Shown here: piece after piece, positions 1 through 9,278 of the stretch
How the letters are laid out: every line of letters starts with the position of its first letter
Numbering within the stretch: the stretch's first letter is position 1
NCBI GenBank assembly: GCA_021324635.1
Contig: JAJPIS010000094.1
Span: forward strand, 1 to 49,502
Length of the DNA stretch: 49,502 nt
DNA from: Gemmatimonadota bacterium
Lineage (GTDB): Bacteria > Gemmatimonadota > Gemmatimonadetes > Gemmatimonadales > Gemmatimonadaceae
Direction of reading: 5' to 3'
Made by a program: the position numbers and the translations under genes
The notes under the pieces: generated by a model
What the model saw: the letters and a program-made list of their open reading frames with translations, nothing else
Database searches by the model: none
What the model was told of the DNA's origin: nothing

Positions 1-93
1 CGGCATGACGGGCCGAACGGCGAACGGCGGGCGGCATGACGGGCCGAACGGCGAACGGCGGGCGGCATGACGGGCCGAACGGCGAACGGCGGG
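1..93. repeat. 31-bp tandem repeat, three perfect copies
   Basis: Units at 1-31, 32-62 and 63-93 are identical and begin CGGCATGACGGGCCGAACGG. A fourth, diverged start follows at 94. The unit begins with half of the GGGCGGCAT palindrome that recurs at 138, 346, 49419 and 49465, so the array seems to be a local expansion of the edge of that repeat element. The array may continue beyond the window. Confidence 0.95.
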
Positions 94-380
94 CGGCATG
101 AATGCCGGGCCAGGCATCCGTGCGGGATGCGAGTCGCGGGCGGCATGAATGCCGCCCCTACGGTGCGCGCACGTTTGCCGCGCGTGCGGCGGTACCCGCG
201 TCGCGCCCGCCGTGGTTGTCCCCGGTGCAGGGGCAATTCGCGACGCGAATTGCCCCTGCACCATCCAAAAAACCCGTTCCTTTGGTGGCCGCGGGACGCG
301 GACGGCGCGACATGCCGCCCGGCATCGGTGCGGGATGCGAGTCGCGGGCGGCATGAATGCCGCCCCTACGCGGGGCCGCG
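91..380 (+). repeat. Composite palindromic repeat element, left copy
   Basis: The block contains palindromes GGGCGGCATGAATGCCGCCC at 138-157 and 346-365, with an imperfect one at 91-110. A long hairpin lies at 224-262: two 18-nt perfect arms around a GAC loop, followed by ATCCAAAAAA. The same modules in the same order, reverse-complemented, make up 49310-49502. Open frames across this region give low-complexity Arg/Gly/Pro translations and I regard them as non-coding. No transposase is present, so it resembles a REP/BIME-like intergenic repeat. Confidence 0.85.
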
Positions 381-468: not shown

Positions 469-588
469 ATGCTCGACGCCGTGTACGTCGCCTGCACGAT
501 CGCGTTCTTCGCCCTGATGCTGGCGTTCGTCCGCGGACTCGAGCTCCTCGGCCGGGACCGCGCCGCTGACGATCAGGATCCTCGATGA
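469..588 (+). CDS. Small membrane protein preceding kdpF (39 aa)
   Basis: The 39-residue product is one hydrophobic helix (about residues 3-21) followed by a charged tail ending RDRAADDQDPR. Its TGA (586-588) overlaps the ATG of kdpF (585-587) in an ATGA junction, so it is very probably co-translated with the Kdp pump. The ATG at 469 is preferred because the reading frame upstream runs through the repeat element, and a -10 hexamer sits 8 nt before it. It is not KdpF, which is the next gene. An accessory small subunit or assembly factor of KdpFABC is inferred from position only. Confidence 0.65.
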   Translation: MLDAVYVACTIAFFALMLAFVRGLELLGRDRAADDQDPR

Positions 589-674
589 GCGCCGAGACCG
601 CCATCGGCGGCGTCGTCGCGCTCGTGATCCTCGTGTACCTCGTGTACACGCTTCTCCGTCCGGAGCGGTTCTGA
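585..674 (+). CDS. kdpF: KdpF, small subunit of the potassium-transporting ATPase
   Basis: The 29-residue hydrophobic peptide has the KdpF pattern: a short polar N-terminus (MSAETAIGG), a single membrane helix rich in Val/Leu with LVYLVYTLL, and the C-terminal PERF typical of the family. KdpF is a lipid-like stabilising subunit between KdpA and other subunits in the inner membrane. It overlaps the preceding ORF by 4 nt, and its TGA is separated from the kdpA ATG by one base, so the genes are translationally linked. It is too short for most gene callers. Confidence 0.93.
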   Translation: MSAETAIGGVVALVILVYLVYTLLRPERF

Positions 675-675
675 G

Positions 676-2394
676 ATGACCGCCGCGGGCTGGGTCCAGA
701 TCGCCCTCTTCTCGGTCGTGCTCCTGGCCGTGACGAGTCCCATGGGCCGGTATCTCGTCCGCGTGTACGACGGCTCCATGCAGTGGCTCGGCCCCGTCGA
801 GCGCCTGCTCTATCGCGCCGGCGGCGTGGACCCGGACGAAGACCAGCACTGGACGCGCTACGCCGCGTCGCTGCTGGTCTTCAGCGCCGTCGGCATGCTC
901 GTGACCTACGCCGTCCTGCGCCTGCAACAGCGGCTGCCACTCGACCCCGCCCACCTCCCGGCCGTCGTCCCGCGCCAGGCATTCGAGACCTCGGCATCAT
1001 TCACGACCAACACCGACTGGCAGTCCTATCCCGGCGGCGAGACGACGATGTCGTACGCGAGCCAGATGACCCAGCTCGCGTTCCACAACTTCATGTCCGC
1101 CGCCGCCGGCGCGGCTGCCGCCGTCGCCCTCGTGCGGGGCCTCGCACGGCGCAGCGCCGGACGAATCGGCAACTTCTACGTCGATCTCGTCCGCGGCACG
1201 CTCTACGTGTTCCTGCCATTCTCGATCGTGCTCGCGCTCCTGTTCGTGCAGCAGGGCGTGATCCAGAACTTCCACCCGTACATCCACGCGGTGACGCTCG
1301 AGGGCGGAGTGCAAACGCTGCCGATGGGTCCGGTGGCGAGCCAGGAAGCGATCAAGCAGCTCGGCACGAACGGCGGCGGCTTCTTCAACCAGAACTCCGC
1401 CCACCCGTTCGAGAACCCGACACCCTGGTCGAACTTCCTCCAGATGGTGGCGATCTTCATCGTCCCGGCCGGCCTCGTGTCGATGTTCGGTCGGATGGTC
1501 GCGAACGGCCGTCATGCCTGGGCGATCTGGTCCGCGATGTTCCTGCTGTTCCTCGGCGGGACCACGGTGACCTACTGGGCCGAGGCGCGGGGAAATCCGA
1601 TTCACGCCGCCCGTGGCATCGACGTGAGCGCGACCGCGACCAACCCCGGCGGCAACATGGAAGGGAAGGAGGTGCGGTTCGGGATCGCGGGCTCGGCCCT
1701 CTTTGCGACCGTGACGACCGACGCGTCCTGCGGCGCCGTCAATGCCATGCACGACTCATTCACGCCCCTGGGCGGGATGGTGCCGCTCGTGAATATGCAG
1801 CTCGGGGAGCTGGTCTACGGTGGGGTGGGGTCCGGTCTCTACGGCATGATCGCCGAGGTCGTGCTCGCCGTGTTCATTGCCGGCCTGATGGTGGGCCGGA
1901 CGCCGGAATATCTCGGCAAGCGCATCGAGAGCCGGGAAGTTCGCGTCGTGATGCTCTTCGTCCTCGTCTATGCCCTGGTCGTGCTGACGTTCACGGCCAC
2001 GGCCGCCGTGACTGCGCCGGGACTGGCGGGCCTGAACAACGCCGGCCCGCACGGCTTCTCCGAGATACTCTACGCCTTCAGCTCCACCGCCGCGACCAAC
2101 GGCAGCGCCTTCGCGGGCCTCACCGGCACGACCACCTTCTACAACACGATGTTCGGCGTCGCCATGCTCTTCGGCCGCTTCGCCATGAAGGTGCCGGTTC
2201 TCGCGCTCGGCGGGTTCATGGCGGAGCGCCGGGCAGCACCGGCAACCGCCGGCACCTTCCCCGTCACGACGCCGCTCTTCGTCGCGCTGCTCCTGAGCGT
2301 GATCGTCATCGTGACCGCGCTCACGTTCGTCCCCGCGCTGGCGTTGGGGCCGGTCGTCGAGCACCTGCTGATGGACGCCGGGCGCCTGTTCTAA
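676..2394 (+). CDS. kdpA: Potassium-transporting ATPase, K+-binding subunit A
   Basis: KdpA forms the K+-selective channel-like subunit of the high-affinity KdpFABC pump in the inner membrane. The 572-residue length is normal. It shows about ten hydrophobic segments and the pore-loop signatures TNGGGFFNQNSAHPFENPT and SCGAVNAMHDSFTPLGGMV, plus TNGSAFAGL near the C-terminus, which correspond to selectivity-filter repeats of the KdpA/Trk superfamily. The ATG follows the kdpF stop by one base, and kdpB begins 12 nt after the stop. K+ limitation presumably controls the operon, but the regulator is not encoded here. Confidence 0.97.
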   Translation: MTAAGWVQIALFSVVLLAVTSPMGRYLVRVYDGSMQWLGPVERLLYRAGGVDPDEDQHWTRYAASLLVFSAVGMLVTYAVLRLQQRLPLDPAHLPAVVPRQAFETSASFTTNTDWQSYPGGETTMSYASQMTQLAFHNFMSAAAGAAAAVALVRGLARRSAGRIGNFYVDLVRGTLYVFLPFSIVLALLFVQQGVIQNFHPYIHAVTLEGGVQTLPMGPVASQEAIKQLGTNGGGFFNQNSAHPFENPTPWSNFLQMVAIFIVPAGLVSMFGRMVANGRHAWAIWSAMFLLFLGGTTVTYWAEARGNPIHAARGIDVSATATNPGGNMEGKEVRFGIAGSALFATVTTDASCGAVNAMHDSFTPLGGMVPLVNMQLGELVYGGVGSGLYGMIAEVVLAVFIAGLMVGRTPEYLGKRIESREVRVVMLFVLVYALVVLTFTATAAVTAPGLAGLNNAGPHGFSEILYAFSSTAATNGSAFAGLTGTTTFYNTMFGVAMLFGRFAMKVPVLALGGFMAERRAAPATAGTFPVTTPLFVALLLSVIVIVTALTFVPALALGPVVEHLLMDAGRLF

Positions 2395-4523: not shown

Positions 4524-5135
4524 ATGCTCCGACACCAGCTCCGTCCCGCGGTCCTCCTGACGCTTCTCCTGATGGTCCTGACCGGTGGCGTCTATCCCGG
4601 GATCGTTACTGGACTCGCGCAGGTGCTGTTTCCCCATCGGGCCGACGGATCGCTGATCGTGCGCGCCGACGGGCGCGTCATCGGGAGCGCCCTCATCGGG
4701 CAGCGGTTCACCGGGATGGGCTACTTCCACCCCCGGCCCTCGGCCGCCGGCTCGGGGTATATCGCCGACTCCTCCGGCGCGACCAACAAGGGTCCGACCG
4801 ATCGCAAGCTCGCCGACACGCTCATCGCCCAGGCGGTCGACAGCGTCGTGCGACGCGAGGGCGCGGTCAGAGGGCATATCCCGTCCGACATGGTCACATC
4901 CTCCGGGTCAGGACTCGACCCCGACATCTCACCGGCCAACGCCGAGCTCCAGGTCGCCCGGGTCGCCCGCGCGCGCGCCACGACCGCCGAGGCCATCCGG
5001 GCGCTGGTCGCATCGCATACGCGAGGGCCCGATGCGGGCGTCTTCGGCGAGTCGCGGGTCAACGTGCTGCTCCTCAACCTCGCTCTCGACTCGGCCGTCC
5101 CGCGCCCGTCCGGTGCGGCACCCTCGGCCAAGTAG
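4524..5135 (+). CDS. kdpC: Potassium-transporting ATPase, subunit C
   Basis: KdpC is the single-span subunit that stabilises the KdpFABC complex and raises nucleotide affinity. The 203-residue protein has one N-terminal membrane helix (LLTLLLMVLTGGVYPGIVTG), then the family motifs GSALIGQRF, YFHPRPSAAG, SSGATNKGPTD and GSGLDPDISPANAELQVARVA. The C-terminus keeps GPDAGVFGESRVNVLLLNLALD. It begins 8 nt after kdpB and is followed by the porin gene after a 27-nt gap. Confidence 0.97.
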   Translation: MLRHQLRPAVLLTLLLMVLTGGVYPGIVTGLAQVLFPHRADGSLIVRADGRVIGSALIGQRFTGMGYFHPRPSAAGSGYIADSSGATNKGPTDRKLADTLIAQAVDSVVRREGAVRGHIPSDMVTSSGSGLDPDISPANAELQVARVARARATTAEAIRALVASHTRGPDAGVFGESRVNVLLLNLALDSAVPRPSGAAPSAK

Positions 5136-5162: not shown

Positions 5163-6593
5163 ATGCACGCTCGTTCCTGCGCCGTTGCGCACGCCTTCGC
5201 GCGCGCGGTCACCCTCCGTGTCCCGCTCTCCGCCGCGCGGGCGGCCGCGCTCGCGCTCGTGGTAGCCGTTGCCCCGCCGGACGTCCGCGCCCAGGCGCCG
5301 GACTCGGCGATGCCACACCGGGACAGCGCAGCCAAACCGGCGCCGTTCTCGTTCGCGGACTTCACGTGGGTGAACGGGAACAGCCGCGCTCATACATCGC
5401 CGCTCGACACCAAGTACTTCACGCCCGAGTTCCGGTTCGACGGGAACTACGTGAACGATCTCAACCGGCCCAAGGATCACACCCTCGACGGCGCCGCCGA
5501 GCTGGGCCGCACGAGCGAGGTACAGGTCCAGCAGCTCGGGATCGGAGGAGACTTTCACTACAACCAGGTACGCGGCCGAGTGATGACGCAGTTCGGATTG
5601 TACTCGCAGCTGACGCCGCGGAGCGACCCGAGCCCGGCCCGCGGGCAGGGGCATCTCGCCGACGCCTATCGCTATGTCTCGGAGGCGTACGGGGGGTACC
5701 ACTGGAACGCCTGGAACGGCATCAATCTGGACGCCGGCATCTTCCTCTCGTACGTCGGGCTCTTCAGCTACTACAACGCCGACAACTGGGCGTACCAACC
5801 GTCGTACGTCTCGGCGAACACGCCCTGGTACTTCAACGGACTCCGCCTCCAGACCTTTCCGAGCCAGAAGCTCAAGGTCGAGCTCTGGCTCGTGAACGGA
5901 TGGCAGTCGTACGGCATGTTCAACGGCCAGCCGGGGTGGGGCACGCAGATCCTCTGGCGTCCGACGGGATCGGTGACGCTACTGACGAACGACTATTACG
6001 GCTTCGATACCTTTGGTGCGCCGAGTCGGATGCGCATCCACAGCGACAACAGCTTTCTCCTCAAGTACTACGACCGGCCGGGCAGCTTCTTCGATCGCGC
6101 GGCGTTCTCGTTCACGGGCGACCTGGGGTGCGAGAGCGGCGGCGGTGTCCGATGCGTCAACGGCGGCGCGGCCCGTCCCGACCAGTACTTCATCGGCTAC
6201 ATGCTCTACGACCGGTCCTGGTTCTCCCACGACCACTTCGGGCTGACGGTCGGCGGCGGGGGCATCACGAACCCCGGTCGCTACCTCGTCCTGCTGCCAC
6301 CGATCAACGGCGCGACGGCCGCGTCCGGTACGCCGTACTTCACCACCAACCCCGGCGACACGTTCCGCGCCTGGGACGGGTCGGTGACGGTCGACTACAT
6401 GCCCGACGAATTCGTGATGTTCCGTGGCGAGCTCGATCACCGGGAGGCGAACGTGCCGTACTTCGTGGGCCGCGGGGGGATCACGCCGCCCGGGGGGAAC
6501 ACGGGCGCCCCGGGCTCGCGGGTCCCCGGCTTCACGCCGGATCTCCGACGGACCGAGACCCGCTTCAACTTCGCCCTGCTCGTCAAGCTCTGA
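5163..6593 (+). CDS. Outer-membrane beta-barrel porin associated with kdp (BBP2/OmpL-like)
   Basis: This 476-residue protein begins with a basic, hydrophobic signal sequence and a likely signal-peptidase site after VRA (about residue 41). The mature part has many alternating aromatic/polar strands, with phrases such as GYHWNAWNGINLDAGIF, NTPWYFNGLRL and LKVELWLVNGWQSYG. These resemble the putative beta-barrel porin-2 family, and the C-terminal strand ends in alternating hydrophobics (FNFALLVKL). A good Shine-Dalgarno (GGAG, 6 nt before ATG) is present. Sitting between kdpC and kdpD, it is likely to supply K+ passage across the outer membrane under K+ stress; that role is inference. Confidence 0.82.
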   Translation: MHARSCAVAHAFARAVTLRVPLSAARAAALALVVAVAPPDVRAQAPDSAMPHRDSAAKPAPFSFADFTWVNGNSRAHTSPLDTKYFTPEFRFDGNYVNDLNRPKDHTLDGAAELGRTSEVQVQQLGIGGDFHYNQVRGRVMTQFGLYSQLTPRSDPSPARGQGHLADAYRYVSEAYGGYHWNAWNGINLDAGIFLSYVGLFSYYNADNWAYQPSYVSANTPWYFNGLRLQTFPSQKLKVELWLVNGWQSYGMFNGQPGWGTQILWRPTGSVTLLTNDYYGFDTFGAPSRMRIHSDNSFLLKYYDRPGSFFDRAAFSFTGDLGCESGGGVRCVNGGAARPDQYFIGYMLYDRSWFSHDHFGLTVGGGGITNPGRYLVLLPPINGATAASGTPYFTTNPGDTFRAWDGSVTVDYMPDEFVMFRGELDHREANVPYFVGRGGITPPGGNTGAPGSRVPGFTPDLRRTETRFNFALLVKL

Positions 6594-6617: not shown

Positions 6618-7787
6618 GTGACCGCTCCCTCGGGATCGTCCACCTTCCTCGATGTCCTGACCCCGCGCGAGCGGGGGAAGCTCAAGCTGTATATCGGCTC
6701 CTTCGCCGGAGTCGGGAAGACGTACCGCATGCTCAACGAAGCGCACGAGCTCCGGCGCCGGGGCGTCGACGTCGTGATCGGCTTCGTCGAGACGCACGGC
6801 CGGGCGGAGACGGCGGCCCAGGTCGGCGACCTCGAGGTCGTGCCCCGGCGGCGGATCGAGTACCGCGGGGTCGTCCTCGAGGAGATGGACCTCGAGGCGG
6901 TGCTCGCGCGACGACCCGAGCTCGCCCTGGTCGACGAGCTGGCTCACACCAACGTGCCCGGCGTCGCCCACCGCAAGCGGTGGGAAGACGTCATGCAGCT
7001 GCTCGACGAGGGGATCAATGTCATCTCGGCCGTCAACGTCCAGCACCTGGAGTCGCTCAACGATGTGGTCGCGCGGACACTCGGCGTGACGGTGCGGGAG
7101 ACGATCCCGGACTGGGTGCTCGGGGCCGCCGATCAGGTGGTCAATATCGATGTCTCGGCCGAGGACCTCCGGCAGCGGCTGAGCGAAGGGAAGATCTACA
7201 GCGCGGACAGGGTCCCATCGGCGCTCGCCAACTTCTTCACCGCCGAGCATCTCACGACGCTCCGAGAGCTGGCGCTCCGCGAGGTCGCGAGCTCGGTCGA
7301 CCGGGTCCGCGAGGCGATCGTCCGGCGGGAGGAGGGTGCTCCGCCCCCCACAGCGAAGACGGTCGACCGGATCCTGGTCGCACTCGCGAGCAACCCGCCG
7401 CACACCGCGGTGCTCCTCCGGAAGGCGAGCCGCATTGCCGGGCGTCTCAACTCGGACTGGTACTGCGTGTACGTGCAGACGCCCGAGGAGGGCGCCGAGC
7501 GGATCGAGACCGACGTGCAGCGACGGCTGGTGGACAACATCCAGCTTGCCCAGTCGATGGGCGCCGAGGTCGTCAAGCTGGTCGGGAGTGACATCGCCGC
7601 CGAGCTCACGCGCTTCGCCCGGACCCGTGGCGTCACGCTCCTCATCATCGGGCAGAGCCGGCGGTCGCGCTGGCACCGCCTGCGCCATGGATCGGTGGTC
7701 GAGCGCCTGACGCACAATGGGGAGAGTCTCGACGTGCTGGTGGTCGCCCTCCCGGCCAAGGGGGACATCCGGCGGGAGCCGCCATGA
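6618..7787 (+). CDS. kdpD: Short KdpD: N-terminal sensor domain plus universal-stress domain, no kinase
   Basis: The 389 residues correspond only to the cytoplasmic N-terminal half of KdpD. A P-loop GSFAGVGKT lies at residues 27-35, a Walker B ALVDELAHTN near 103-112, and a universal-stress-protein (UspA) domain covers about 250-379. E. coli KdpD (894 aa) continues into four membrane helices, GAF and histidine-kinase domains; all are missing, and the reading frame ends cleanly. Short KdpD proteins are known, for example in cyanobacteria. It starts with GTG and its stop overlaps the next ATG (ATGA at 7784), so the two proteins are probably made together. A role as K+ or nucleotide sensor for the pump is inferred. 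Confidence 0.9.
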   Translation: MTAPSGSSTFLDVLTPRERGKLKLYIGSFAGVGKTYRMLNEAHELRRRGVDVVIGFVETHGRAETAAQVGDLEVVPRRRIEYRGVVLEEMDLEAVLARRPELALVDELAHTNVPGVAHRKRWEDVMQLLDEGINVISAVNVQHLESLNDVVARTLGVTVRETIPDWVLGAADQVVNIDVSAEDLRQRLSEGKIYSADRVPSALANFFTAEHLTTLRELALREVASSVDRVREAIVRREEGAPPPTAKTVDRILVALASNPPHTAVLLRKASRIAGRLNSDWYCVYVQTPEEGAERIETDVQRRLVDNIQLAQSMGAEVVKLVGSDIAAELTRFARTRGVTLLIIGQSRRSRWHRLRHGSVVERLTHNGESLDVLVVALPAKGDIRREPP

Positions 7788-8767
7788 GCATCAATCAGCG
7801 TCTCTTCCTCGCCGTCCTGCCCGGGATTCTCGGCGTTCTCACGGTCGCCGGCCTCGCGTACTGGGGGCAGTACGGGCGCCAGGCGCCGAACCTGCTCGTC
7901 GGCATCGCCATCGTCGCATCGCTGGTGTCGCTGGCCGTCGCGTGGCGGACGACCCGCGAGGTCGCGGCCCGCGTGTCGCGGCTCGCGGCCTCCGGCTCCG
8001 GCGGGCCGACCGATGAGCTGCGGGCGATCGAGGACGAGGTCGCGCGCCTCCGCCAGGCGCTCGCGGACGCGCACGCGGAGGTGGCCTCGAGCGAAGCCCG
8101 CGCCGACGACGTCGCGCGGGAGTACCGGGGACTGGTCGCCGACGCCGCCGGCTCGGCGGCGCGGCAGCTCGACGAAATCCGGATGCCGCTGCACATCCTG
8201 TTGGAGAACCGCTTCGGCGATCTCAACGAGAATCAGGAGGAGATGCTCAGCGCGGCGCGACAGGCGGCGGACGAGGCCCAGGGGGCGCTCGACCGGCTAC
8301 GTACGGTCGCCGACATCGACCGTGGCGGTCTCCGGCTACGCGCCGAGCGCGTGCGGGTGGGCGATCTGCTGGCGGCGCTGATGCCCGCCCTGGCGGCGGA
8401 CGCGGCCCGAGGCGGGGTCGCGTTCGACGTCGAGATTGCGCCGCTCCTGCCAACGGTCGACGGTGACCGGGCCCGATTGCGCCGGGCGCTCGATCTCGTG
8501 GCGCGCGACGCCGTCGGACGGACGCCCGCAGGCGGCCGCGTGCGGATCACCGCCCGAGCGTGTGCAAGCGCGCCGGGGATCGAGATGCGCGTCAGCCACG
8601 GCGGCGGGCCGCCGCACGCGACCGACATCGCGCTCGCCCGCCGCATCATCGAGGCCCATCGGGGCAGCGTGCGGCAGGATGGCGCGGAGACGGTCGTGTC
8701 GCTGCCGGTGGCGGACCCACAGGCCAGCTCCGGTTGCGTTCGATCGGGGTCGGTCGTGTCTCAGTAG
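7784..8767 (+). CDS. Degenerate membrane histidine kinase-like protein, partner of short KdpD
   Basis: The 327 residues contain two membrane helices (about 5-27 and 38-54), a coiled coil (75-115), a dimerisation-like segment (120-175) and an HATPase-like C-terminus (190-309). Key residues differ from working kinases. In the H-box the motif reads LDEIRMPL, with Asp130 where the phospho-acceptor His should be. The N-box reads LVARDAVGRTP, with Asp242 for Asn. The G1 box lacks the usual D-x-G-x-G and reads VSHGGGP. The G2-side helix RRIIEAHRGSV is retained. It looks like a pseudokinase. The gene overlaps kdpD by 4 nt. Confidence 0.72.
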   Translation: MSINQRLFLAVLPGILGVLTVAGLAYWGQYGRQAPNLLVGIAIVASLVSLAVAWRTTREVAARVSRLAASGSGGPTDELRAIEDEVARLRQALADAHAEVASSEARADDVAREYRGLVADAAGSAARQLDEIRMPLHILLENRFGDLNENQEEMLSAARQAADEAQGALDRLRTVADIDRGGLRLRAERVRVGDLLAALMPALAADAARGGVAFDVEIAPLLPTVDGDRARLRRALDLVARDAVGRTPAGGRVRITARACASAPGIEMRVSHGGGPPHATDIALARRIIEAHRGSVRQDGAETVVSLPVADPQASSGCVRSGSVVSQ

Positions 8768-8816: not shown

Positions 8817-9278
8817 ATGAGCGCCACGCCGCAACCCGATCCTTCGTCGCCGTCGGCCATCACGGCGCTTCAATTGAAGCGTGAGCGGCTGCGCTTCACG
8901 GACTTCAAGTTCGTGCGCACGCCATCCGGACTGTGCACGGCCGAGGTCGAGCTCGAGTGGTTGGACGGCGTGACGGTCGTCGGCAAAGCCAGCGGTCAGT
9001 CCAGTCCTATGGGGGATCTCAGAATCGCCGCCGAAGCGTCGCTCCGCGCCCTGGAGAGCTTCTCCGGTGGCGCGCTGGAGTTCGAGCTGGCGGGCATCAA
9101 GGCCCTGCGTGCGTTCGACGCGAACATCGTCATCGTCGCCCTCGGGGTGCGGAAAGGTGATGGCCCTCGACGACTCCTGGGGAGCTATCTTGCCGAGCGT
9201 GACCCTGTGCGAGCGGCCGTGATCGCCGTGCTCAACGCCACCAACCGTCTGCTGGGAAACTTCATCGCCACACGGTGA
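8817..9278 (+). CDS. Conserved-looking protein of unknown function (153 aa)
   Basis: I do not recognise a named family. The ATG at 8817 is chosen because upstream codons in the same frame are the out-of-frame shadow of the kinase-like gene. The product is soluble with a disordered first 20 residues. It then has a strand-rich unit (RFTDFKFVRTPSGLCTAEVE, a GxAxG-like turn at GKASGQSS), a helix LRIAAEASLRALESF, and a second strand-helix unit ending AVIAVLNATNRLLG. The alternation of Val-rich strands with one long helix suggests a small alpha/beta ligand-binding or regulatory domain. Its stop overlaps a possible GTG at 9275 of the next gene. Confidence 0.7.
   Translation: MSATPQPDPSSPSAITALQLKRERLRFTDFKFVRTPSGLCTAEVELEWLDGVTVVGKASGQSSPMGDLRIAAEASLRALESFSGGALEFELAGIKALRAFDANIVIVALGVRKGDGPRRLLGSYLAERDPVRAAVIAVLNATNRLLGNFIATR

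What the first reader, a model, noticed from the sequence alone, without database searches (positions are those of the whole stretch)
6618..8767. Split and disabled Kdp sensor: short KdpD plus an overlapping pseudokinase, no kdpE
KdpD stops after its P-loop and USP domains. The following gene, overlapping by 4 nt, has two membrane helices and histidine-kinase architecture but Asp130 in place of the phospho-His, Asp in the N-box and no Asp in the G1 box. Together they cover the KdpD sensory and membrane parts while losing kinase chemistry. The pair may sense K+ or turgor and signal by protein contact rather than phosphotransfer, possibly acting directly on the pump.
Basis: partly seen in the sequence, partly recalled or inferred. 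Interest (0 to 1): 0.6.

Follow-up and report, generated by a model that had tools for sequence, protein, structure and literature searches.

The report
Pseudokinase partner of short potassium sensor
In one group of soil bacteria the potassium-pump sensor KdpD is split in two, its working kinase and regulator lie just beyond the edge of this window, and the sensor's front half is nearly always followed by a conserved dead kinase that probably helps it control the pump.

Summary
The short KdpD and the overlapping kinase-like gene are real. The 327-aa protein (pHK) has a histidine-kinase fold but no phospho-His and no intact ATP-binding motifs. It is not decaying: all 44 homologs compared lack the His, and dN/dS is 0.05-0.31.

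"No kdpE" and "kinase lost" come from an assembly break. The window starts in a 31-bp tandem repeat. Contig C51 of the same genome overlaps it exactly (94 bp) and carries kdpE and an intact DUF4118/GAF/HisKA/HATPase kinase. A sister genome has the order contiguous: kdpE, kinase, kdpFABC, porin, short kdpD, pHK. This is the known split-KdpD design plus one new part. KdpD's N-terminal domain is published as a serine kinase that inactivates the pump through KdpB Ser162; those residues are conserved here.

pHK occurs in 29 of 249 phylum genomes, always directly after short kdpD, usually with the same 4-nt overlap, and fused to KdpD in one lineage. Seven relatives with long KdpD lack it. Most likely it is a non-catalytic partner of the KdpD serine kinase. 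Thirteen of 30 pHK genomes lack a detectable diadenylate cyclase, so c-di-AMP is unlikely to be the general input. The partnership is inferred, not shown.

The parts
1..94 (.). 31-bp tandem repeat at the contig end; exact 94-bp overlap with contig C51, beyond which lie the Kdp histidine kinase and kdpE
   Evidence: suffix-prefix comparison of C51 reverse complement with the window
585..674 (+). kdpF, 29 aa
   Evidence: PF09604 and TIGR02115 over cut-off
676..2394 (+). kdpA, K+ channel-like subunit
   Evidence: PF03814, 765 bits
2407..4515 (+). kdpB, P-type ATPase; carries [10 protein letters not shown], whose Ser corresponds to E. coli S162, target of the KdpD serine kinase
   Evidence: E1-E2_ATPase and Hydrolase; motif
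4524..5135 (+). kdpC
   Evidence: PF02669
5163..6593 (+). BBP2 outer-membrane beta-barrel porin inside the operon
   Evidence: PF07642, E 3e-39; found between kdpC and kdpD in most related loci
6618..7787 (+). short kdpD, 389 aa: KdpD P-loop (atypical serine kinase) domain + Usp domain
   Evidence: PF02702 and PF00582; best NCBIfam match KdpD-like non-kinase potassium sensor, below its cut-off
6696..6722 (+). Walker A, G-X5-GKT (GSFAGVGKT)
   Evidence: sequence; conserved in relatives
6933..6938 (+). Walker B Asp-Glu of LVDELAH, residues published as needed for phosphorylating KdpB
   Evidence: sequence; PMC11018627
7784..8767 (+). pHK, 327-aa pseudo-histidine kinase; its ATG overlaps the kdpD stop by 4 nt
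7790..7957 (+). pHK N-terminal membrane helices 3-28 and 36-58 with a very short loop
   Evidence: helices in the model, hydrophobic sequence; missing or reduced in several relatives
8186..8242 (+). pHK hairpin-tip motif PLHILLENRFGDLNENQEE, the best conserved part of the family
   Evidence: invariant L139, F144, G145, L147, N150, Q151, E153
8345..8707 (+). pHK CA-like domain without N-box Asn, G1 Asp and ATP lid

Best explanation
This is a KdpD split over separate proteins, with KdpE as regulator and one extra protein, in Gemmatimonadota. Shown by sequence: the histidine-kinase half (DUF4118 membrane part, GAF, intact DHp/CA) is a separate gene next to kdpE, upstream of kdpFABC; the N-terminal half (P-loop serine-kinase domain + Usp) is the short kdpD downstream; and short kdpD overlaps pHK, a conserved pseudo-histidine kinase. 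Inferred from published work on E. coli and Deinococcus geothermalis KdpD: short KdpD shuts the pump off at high K+ by phosphorylating KdpB on the TGES serine. Inferred: pHK is the dedicated, non-catalytic partner of that serine kinase. It would dimerise through its DHp-like hairpin, hold KdpD at the membrane in most lineages, and gate or position its kinase domain, supplying the membrane and dimer scaffold that short KdpD lacks now that the real kinase half is a separate protein.
For: In 249 phylum genomes pHK occurs in 29, all directly after short kdpD. 24 of 28 loci have the same 4-nt overlap of the two genes. KdpD and pHK are one open reading frame in one lineage, L187 (= L103) and L105. 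Seven relatives with long KdpD lack pHK. G023 has short KdpD and the split kinase without pHK, and unlinked kdpE-kinase pairs occur elsewhere in several genomes, so pHK does not follow the histidine kinase. Purifying selection; invariant hairpin tip. Serine-kinase residues and the KdpB target serine are conserved. 13 of 30 pHK genomes (91-100% complete) have no detectable diadenylate cyclase, so the c-di-AMP control published for a short KdpD is unlikely to be general here.
Against: No interaction, phosphorylation or phenotype data. pHK has few or no membrane helices in several genomes, so anchoring is not its only role. G023, G060 and G222 manage with short KdpD alone. The own genome has a diadenylate cyclase (C66), so c-di-AMP may act here. 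The fusion is a single lineage. Gene coupling also fits a shared role with the histidine kinase.
Confidence: 0.52

Rival explanations
1. pHK acts mainly on the active Kdp histidine kinase encoded in the same operon. It forms heterodimers with it, as the pseudokinase RocA interacts with CovS, shifting the kinase/phosphatase balance and so KdpE output. It may also bridge that kinase to short KdpD.
For: The kinase and kdpE are intact in the same cluster. Nearest solved structures include DivL and RetS, pseudo or unorthodox kinases. RocA is a published precedent (PMC7028121).
Against: pHK is fused to and overlaps KdpD, not the kinase. The kinase occurs without pHK in G023 and as unlinked kdpE-kinase pairs in several genomes.
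Confidence: 0.27
2. pHK is only a passive membrane anchor that keeps short KdpD near the pump.
For: Two short membrane helices in most members; short KdpD has none.
Against: G031, G069, G111, G224 and the fused G206 have no membrane helices, G003 and G151 only one, while the DHp hairpin tip is the most conserved part.
Confidence: 0.1
3. One reading: the pair replaces the two-component system, senses K+ or turgor and signals by contact only.
For: pHK has no kinase chemistry.
Against: kdpE and an intact Kdp histidine kinase are present in the same cluster.
Confidence: 0.05
4. pHK is an atypical enzyme that still phosphorylates, for example on His137.
For: His137 is kept in 41 of 44 members; a CA-like fold remains.
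Against: His137 is Tyr or Gln in three members; G1 Asp is lost in all 44 and the N-box Asn in 43; the ATP lid is missing in the model.
Confidence: 0.03
5. pHK is a decaying kinase without function.
For: Catalytic motifs are gone.
Against: dN/dS 0.05-0.31 in 13 pairs, invariant residues across the class, conserved gene overlap.
Confidence: 0.01

Closest known systems
Split Kdp regulation of Deinococcus radiodurans (KdpD-N + separate sensor kinase + response regulator; PMC5716572)
   Same: KdpD N-terminal half encoded after the pump genes; C-terminal-type kinase and response regulator as separate genes next to the operon
   Different: Deinococcus has no pHK; its kinase is annotated as HAMP type and its kinase/regulator genes are divergent; here the kinase has DUF4118 + GAF and precedes kdpF on the same strand in most loci
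Short KdpD serine kinase of Deinococcus geothermalis, c-di-AMP controlled (PMC11018627)
   Same: KdpD + Usp architecture, Walker A and B, KdpB target serine
   Different: Here coupled to pHK; 13 of 30 such genomes have no detectable diadenylate cyclase; D. geothermalis uses c-di-AMP
Pseudo-histidine kinases DivL (Caulobacter), RocA (group A Streptococcus), RetS (Pseudomonas)
   Same: DHp-CA fold; DivL is the top fold and profile match; catalytic residues lost as in DivL and RocA
   Different: Those act in histidine-kinase networks; pHK is linked and in one lineage fused to the P-loop serine kinase KdpD, and has the ATP lid and G1 box missing
Full-length KdpD/KdpE of E. coli
   Same: All functional modules of KdpD and KdpE are present in the cluster
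   Different: Spread over two chains plus an extra degenerate DHp/CA protein; full-length KdpD occurs in other Gemmatimonadota, which lack pHK

Membership tests
KdpD atypical serine kinase (short KdpD) | KdpD domain PF02702 followed by Usp domain | tested here: met
   313.5 and 41.2 bits, both over cut-off
KdpD atypical serine kinase (short KdpD) | Walker A G-X5-GKT, Walker B Asp-Glu, and TGES serine in KdpB | tested here: met
   [26 protein letters not shown]
KdpD atypical serine kinase (short KdpD) | Phosphorylates KdpB | not testable with these tools
   needs a biochemical assay
c-di-AMP-controlled KdpD | Diadenylate cyclase in the genome | tested here: met
   present in the own genome (C66:29003-29356); absent in 13 of 30 relatives with pHK
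c-di-AMP-controlled KdpD | SXS-X20-FTAXY motif in Usp | tested here: inconclusive
   absent; the E. coli-type RXXXR-X8-WXXVY is present instead; but D. radiodurans KdpD-N lacks the S. aureus motif too
Split KdpDE two-component system | Separate DUF4118/GAF/HisKA/HATPase kinase with intact H, N, G1, G2 boxes | tested here: met
   L157:195-1925, contig C51
Split KdpDE two-component system | KdpE response regulator | tested here: met
   49% identical to E. coli KdpE; best NCBIfam model is KdpE, 228 bits, below its cut-off of 325; next to the kinase
Active histidine kinase (for pHK) | Phospho-acceptor His | tested here: not met
   none of 44 members, in either register
Active histidine kinase (for pHK) | N-box Asn, G1 Asp, G2 glycines | tested here: not met
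   D, H and no GxGLG in the window protein; G1 Asp in 0 of 44, N-box Asn in 1 of 44; 20 of 20 control kinases keep both
Pseudo-histidine kinase (DivL/RocA type, for pHK) | DHp-CA fold without catalytic residues | tested here: met
Pseudo-histidine kinase (DivL/RocA type, for pHK) | Binds and modulates a partner kinase | not testable with these tools
   no interaction data

The most novel reading that the evidence does not exclude
pHK is the missing input device of the KdpD serine kinase. In Gemmatimonadota that use short KdpD without c-di-AMP, a membrane-bound pseudo-histidine kinase senses the cell's state and switches the serine kinase that inactivates the K+ pump. A histidine-kinase scaffold would thus have been rewired to control a P-loop protein kinase by contact.
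Probability: 0.3. Interest if true: 0.68.

Novelty: new variant of a known kind. Interest (0 to 1): 0.45.

Why it matters
The inhibitory phosphorylation of KdpB was assigned to KdpD's N-terminal domain only in 2024, and control of a short KdpD has been shown only for c-di-AMP. A protein encoded together with short KdpD in nearly all these genomes, including those without a detectable diadenylate cyclase, is a direct candidate for another control. It would also be a pseudo-histidine-kinase family whose probable client is not a histidine kinase.

Tried and rejected
Missing kdpE and kinase: rejected once C51 was found. Asp130 as a fixed replacement of the His: rejected (register; D/E/A/Q/K/T/R in homologs). 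Decaying copy: rejected by dN/dS and conservation. Absence of the S. aureus-type c-di-AMP motif as evidence against c-di-AMP control: dropped, because D. radiodurans KdpD-N lacks it too. Link between loss of membrane helices in pHK and presence of a diadenylate cyclase (7 of 7 reduced pHKs are in cyclase-bearing genomes): cannot be tested, only 2 supported independent pairs. Modelling the natural KdpD-pHK fusion: given up, because the pHK-only rows appeared misaligned in A3. One search was my error: I translated the antisense of kdpE, and its counts are not used. pHK relatives on plasmids: none. Relatives outside Gemmatimonadota: the collection scan gave only four distant matches to ordinary kinases (L113-L116); it is limited to loci with the motif FG[DEA]LN[DE]NQ. 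Two literature searches (KdpD with Gemmatimonadota; KdpD with pseudokinase) gave no title or abstract on such a protein.

Full report
What is in the window. The operon reads kdpF (585-674), kdpA, kdpB, kdpC, a BBP2 porin, short kdpD (6618-7787) and a 327-aa kinase-like gene (7784-8767), here called pHK. KdpD carries the KdpD P-loop domain and Usp only. pHK has almost no Pfam signal: HisKA at E 0.02, and of 44 homologs only one reaches HisKA and two HATPase_c at E 0.01. AlphaFold gives a confident model (mean pLDDT 88): two N-terminal helices, a long helix, a DHp hairpin and a CA-like domain. The best solved matches are DHp-CA structures, with the pseudokinase DivL first by Foldseek and by profile, and HK853 at 3.3 A over 201 residues.

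The missing kinase and kdpE are an artefact of the window edge. A search of the own genome found one response regulator clearly closest to KdpE (49% identity to E. coli KdpE; next 41%) near the beginning of contig C51. Behind it lies a 577-aa protein with DUF4118, GAF, HisKA and HATPase_c over their Pfam cut-offs and with SVSHDLRTPL, NLLENAL, DRGVGV and GAGLGL intact. The reverse complement of C51 ends in the same 31-bp tandem repeat with which the window begins; the exact overlap is 94 bp. A shared repeat alone does not prove the join, but in the sister genome G002 and in most other relatives the order kdpE - kinase - kdpA - kdpB - kdpC - (porin) - short kdpD - pHK is contiguous. Of 18 genomes searched (17 with pHK, plus G023), all have KdpE and 17 have the kinase; in the exception, G001, kdpE sits at a contig end. 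So this is the split-KdpD design known from Deinococcus (PMC5716572; gene order in D. radiodurans), and described by Silberberg et al. as the commonest split combination (PMC11018627).

pHK is a conserved pseudokinase. Homologs were collected from whole genomes and from a collection of about 85,000 species genomes; 44 sequences were aligned, nearly all from records labelled Gemmatimonadota (one contig labelled Gammaproteobacteria is probably misbinned). None has a His at the phospho-acceptor site in either possible register, none keeps the G1 Asp and one keeps the N-box Asn, while 20 of 20 control kinases keep all three. Asp130 is not fixed (D 23, E 11, A 4, others), and the structural comparison places the His site near residue 123 (inferred from the ranges). 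The strongest conservation is at the hairpin tip, FGxLNxNQxE. dN/dS for 13 pairs is 0.05 to 0.31.

pHK belongs to short KdpD. In 249 genomes drawn from the phylum, pHK occurs in 29 (E at most 3e-57; the next matches, E 6e-28 and weaker, are ordinary kinases), each time directly after short kdpD. Short KdpD occurs in 32 of them; the three without pHK are G023, G060 and G222. None of seven relatives with full-length KdpD (G005, G010, G028, G037, G045, G055, G056) has it. In 24 of 28 loci the two genes overlap by exactly 4 nt. In one lineage (L187, the same contig as L103, and L105) KdpD and pHK are one open reading frame without membrane helices. In G031, G069, G111 and G224 pHK has no membrane helices, and in G003 and G151 only one. 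On the KdpD tree G060 and G222 fall outside the clade that holds all pHK-bearing genomes and G023, so pHK was probably gained once and lost in G023.

How it most likely works. Published: the KdpD domain is an atypical serine kinase that phosphorylates KdpB S162 and stops the pump; a short KdpD from D. geothermalis is stimulated by c-di-AMP (PMC11018627). Here Walker A, Walker B and the TGES serine are intact, so the same activity is expected (inference). A diadenylate cyclase is present in the own genome but not found in 13 of 30 pHK genomes that are 91-100% complete, so c-di-AMP is unlikely to be the general control. Short KdpD has no membrane part and no DHp of its own, and pHK offers both. 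The simplest reading is that pHK is a non-catalytic subunit of the KdpD serine kinase that gates or positions it. A role on the neighbouring histidine kinase, as for RocA on CovS (PMC7028121), is the main rival; gene order and fusion favour KdpD. Direct contact and effect are not shown.

Verdict. Observation partly confirmed, interpretation partly supported. The pump, the serine-kinase KdpD, the split kinase and KdpE are known kinds; the coupled pseudo-histidine kinase is a new part of a known system.

Noticed in passing
window 469-588 (+): 39-aa membrane ORF (MLDAVYVACTIAFFALMLAFVR...) overlapping kdpF by 4 nt; similar ORFs precede kdpF in L032, L034, L039 and L044; no NCBIfam match.
   Followed up: partly
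window 5163-6593 (+): A BBP2-family outer-membrane porin sits between kdpC and kdpD in most related kdp operons, suggesting an outer-membrane K+ route.
   Followed up: no
window 8817-9275 (+): 153-aa protein, 88-90% identical in two sister genomes, without any Pfam or NCBIfam family above cut-off.
   Followed up: no
window 1-94 and contig C51 end: 31-bp tandem repeat at which the assembly broke; similar GGCGGCATGA-type repeats continue to about 370.
   Followed up: partly
G006, G020, G021, G022, G023, G027, G031, G032, G033: Additional kdpE-like regulator plus similar-kinase pairs lie away from the kdp operon in several genomes; their targets are unknown.
   Followed up: no
L192 (G222): Short kdpD overlapped by an NtrC-type response regulator instead of pHK, in another family of the class.
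   Followed up: no
L080: Contig labelled Gammaproteobacteria carries KdpD and pHK 56-78% identical to the window; probably a misbinned Gemmatimonadota contig.
   Followed up: no
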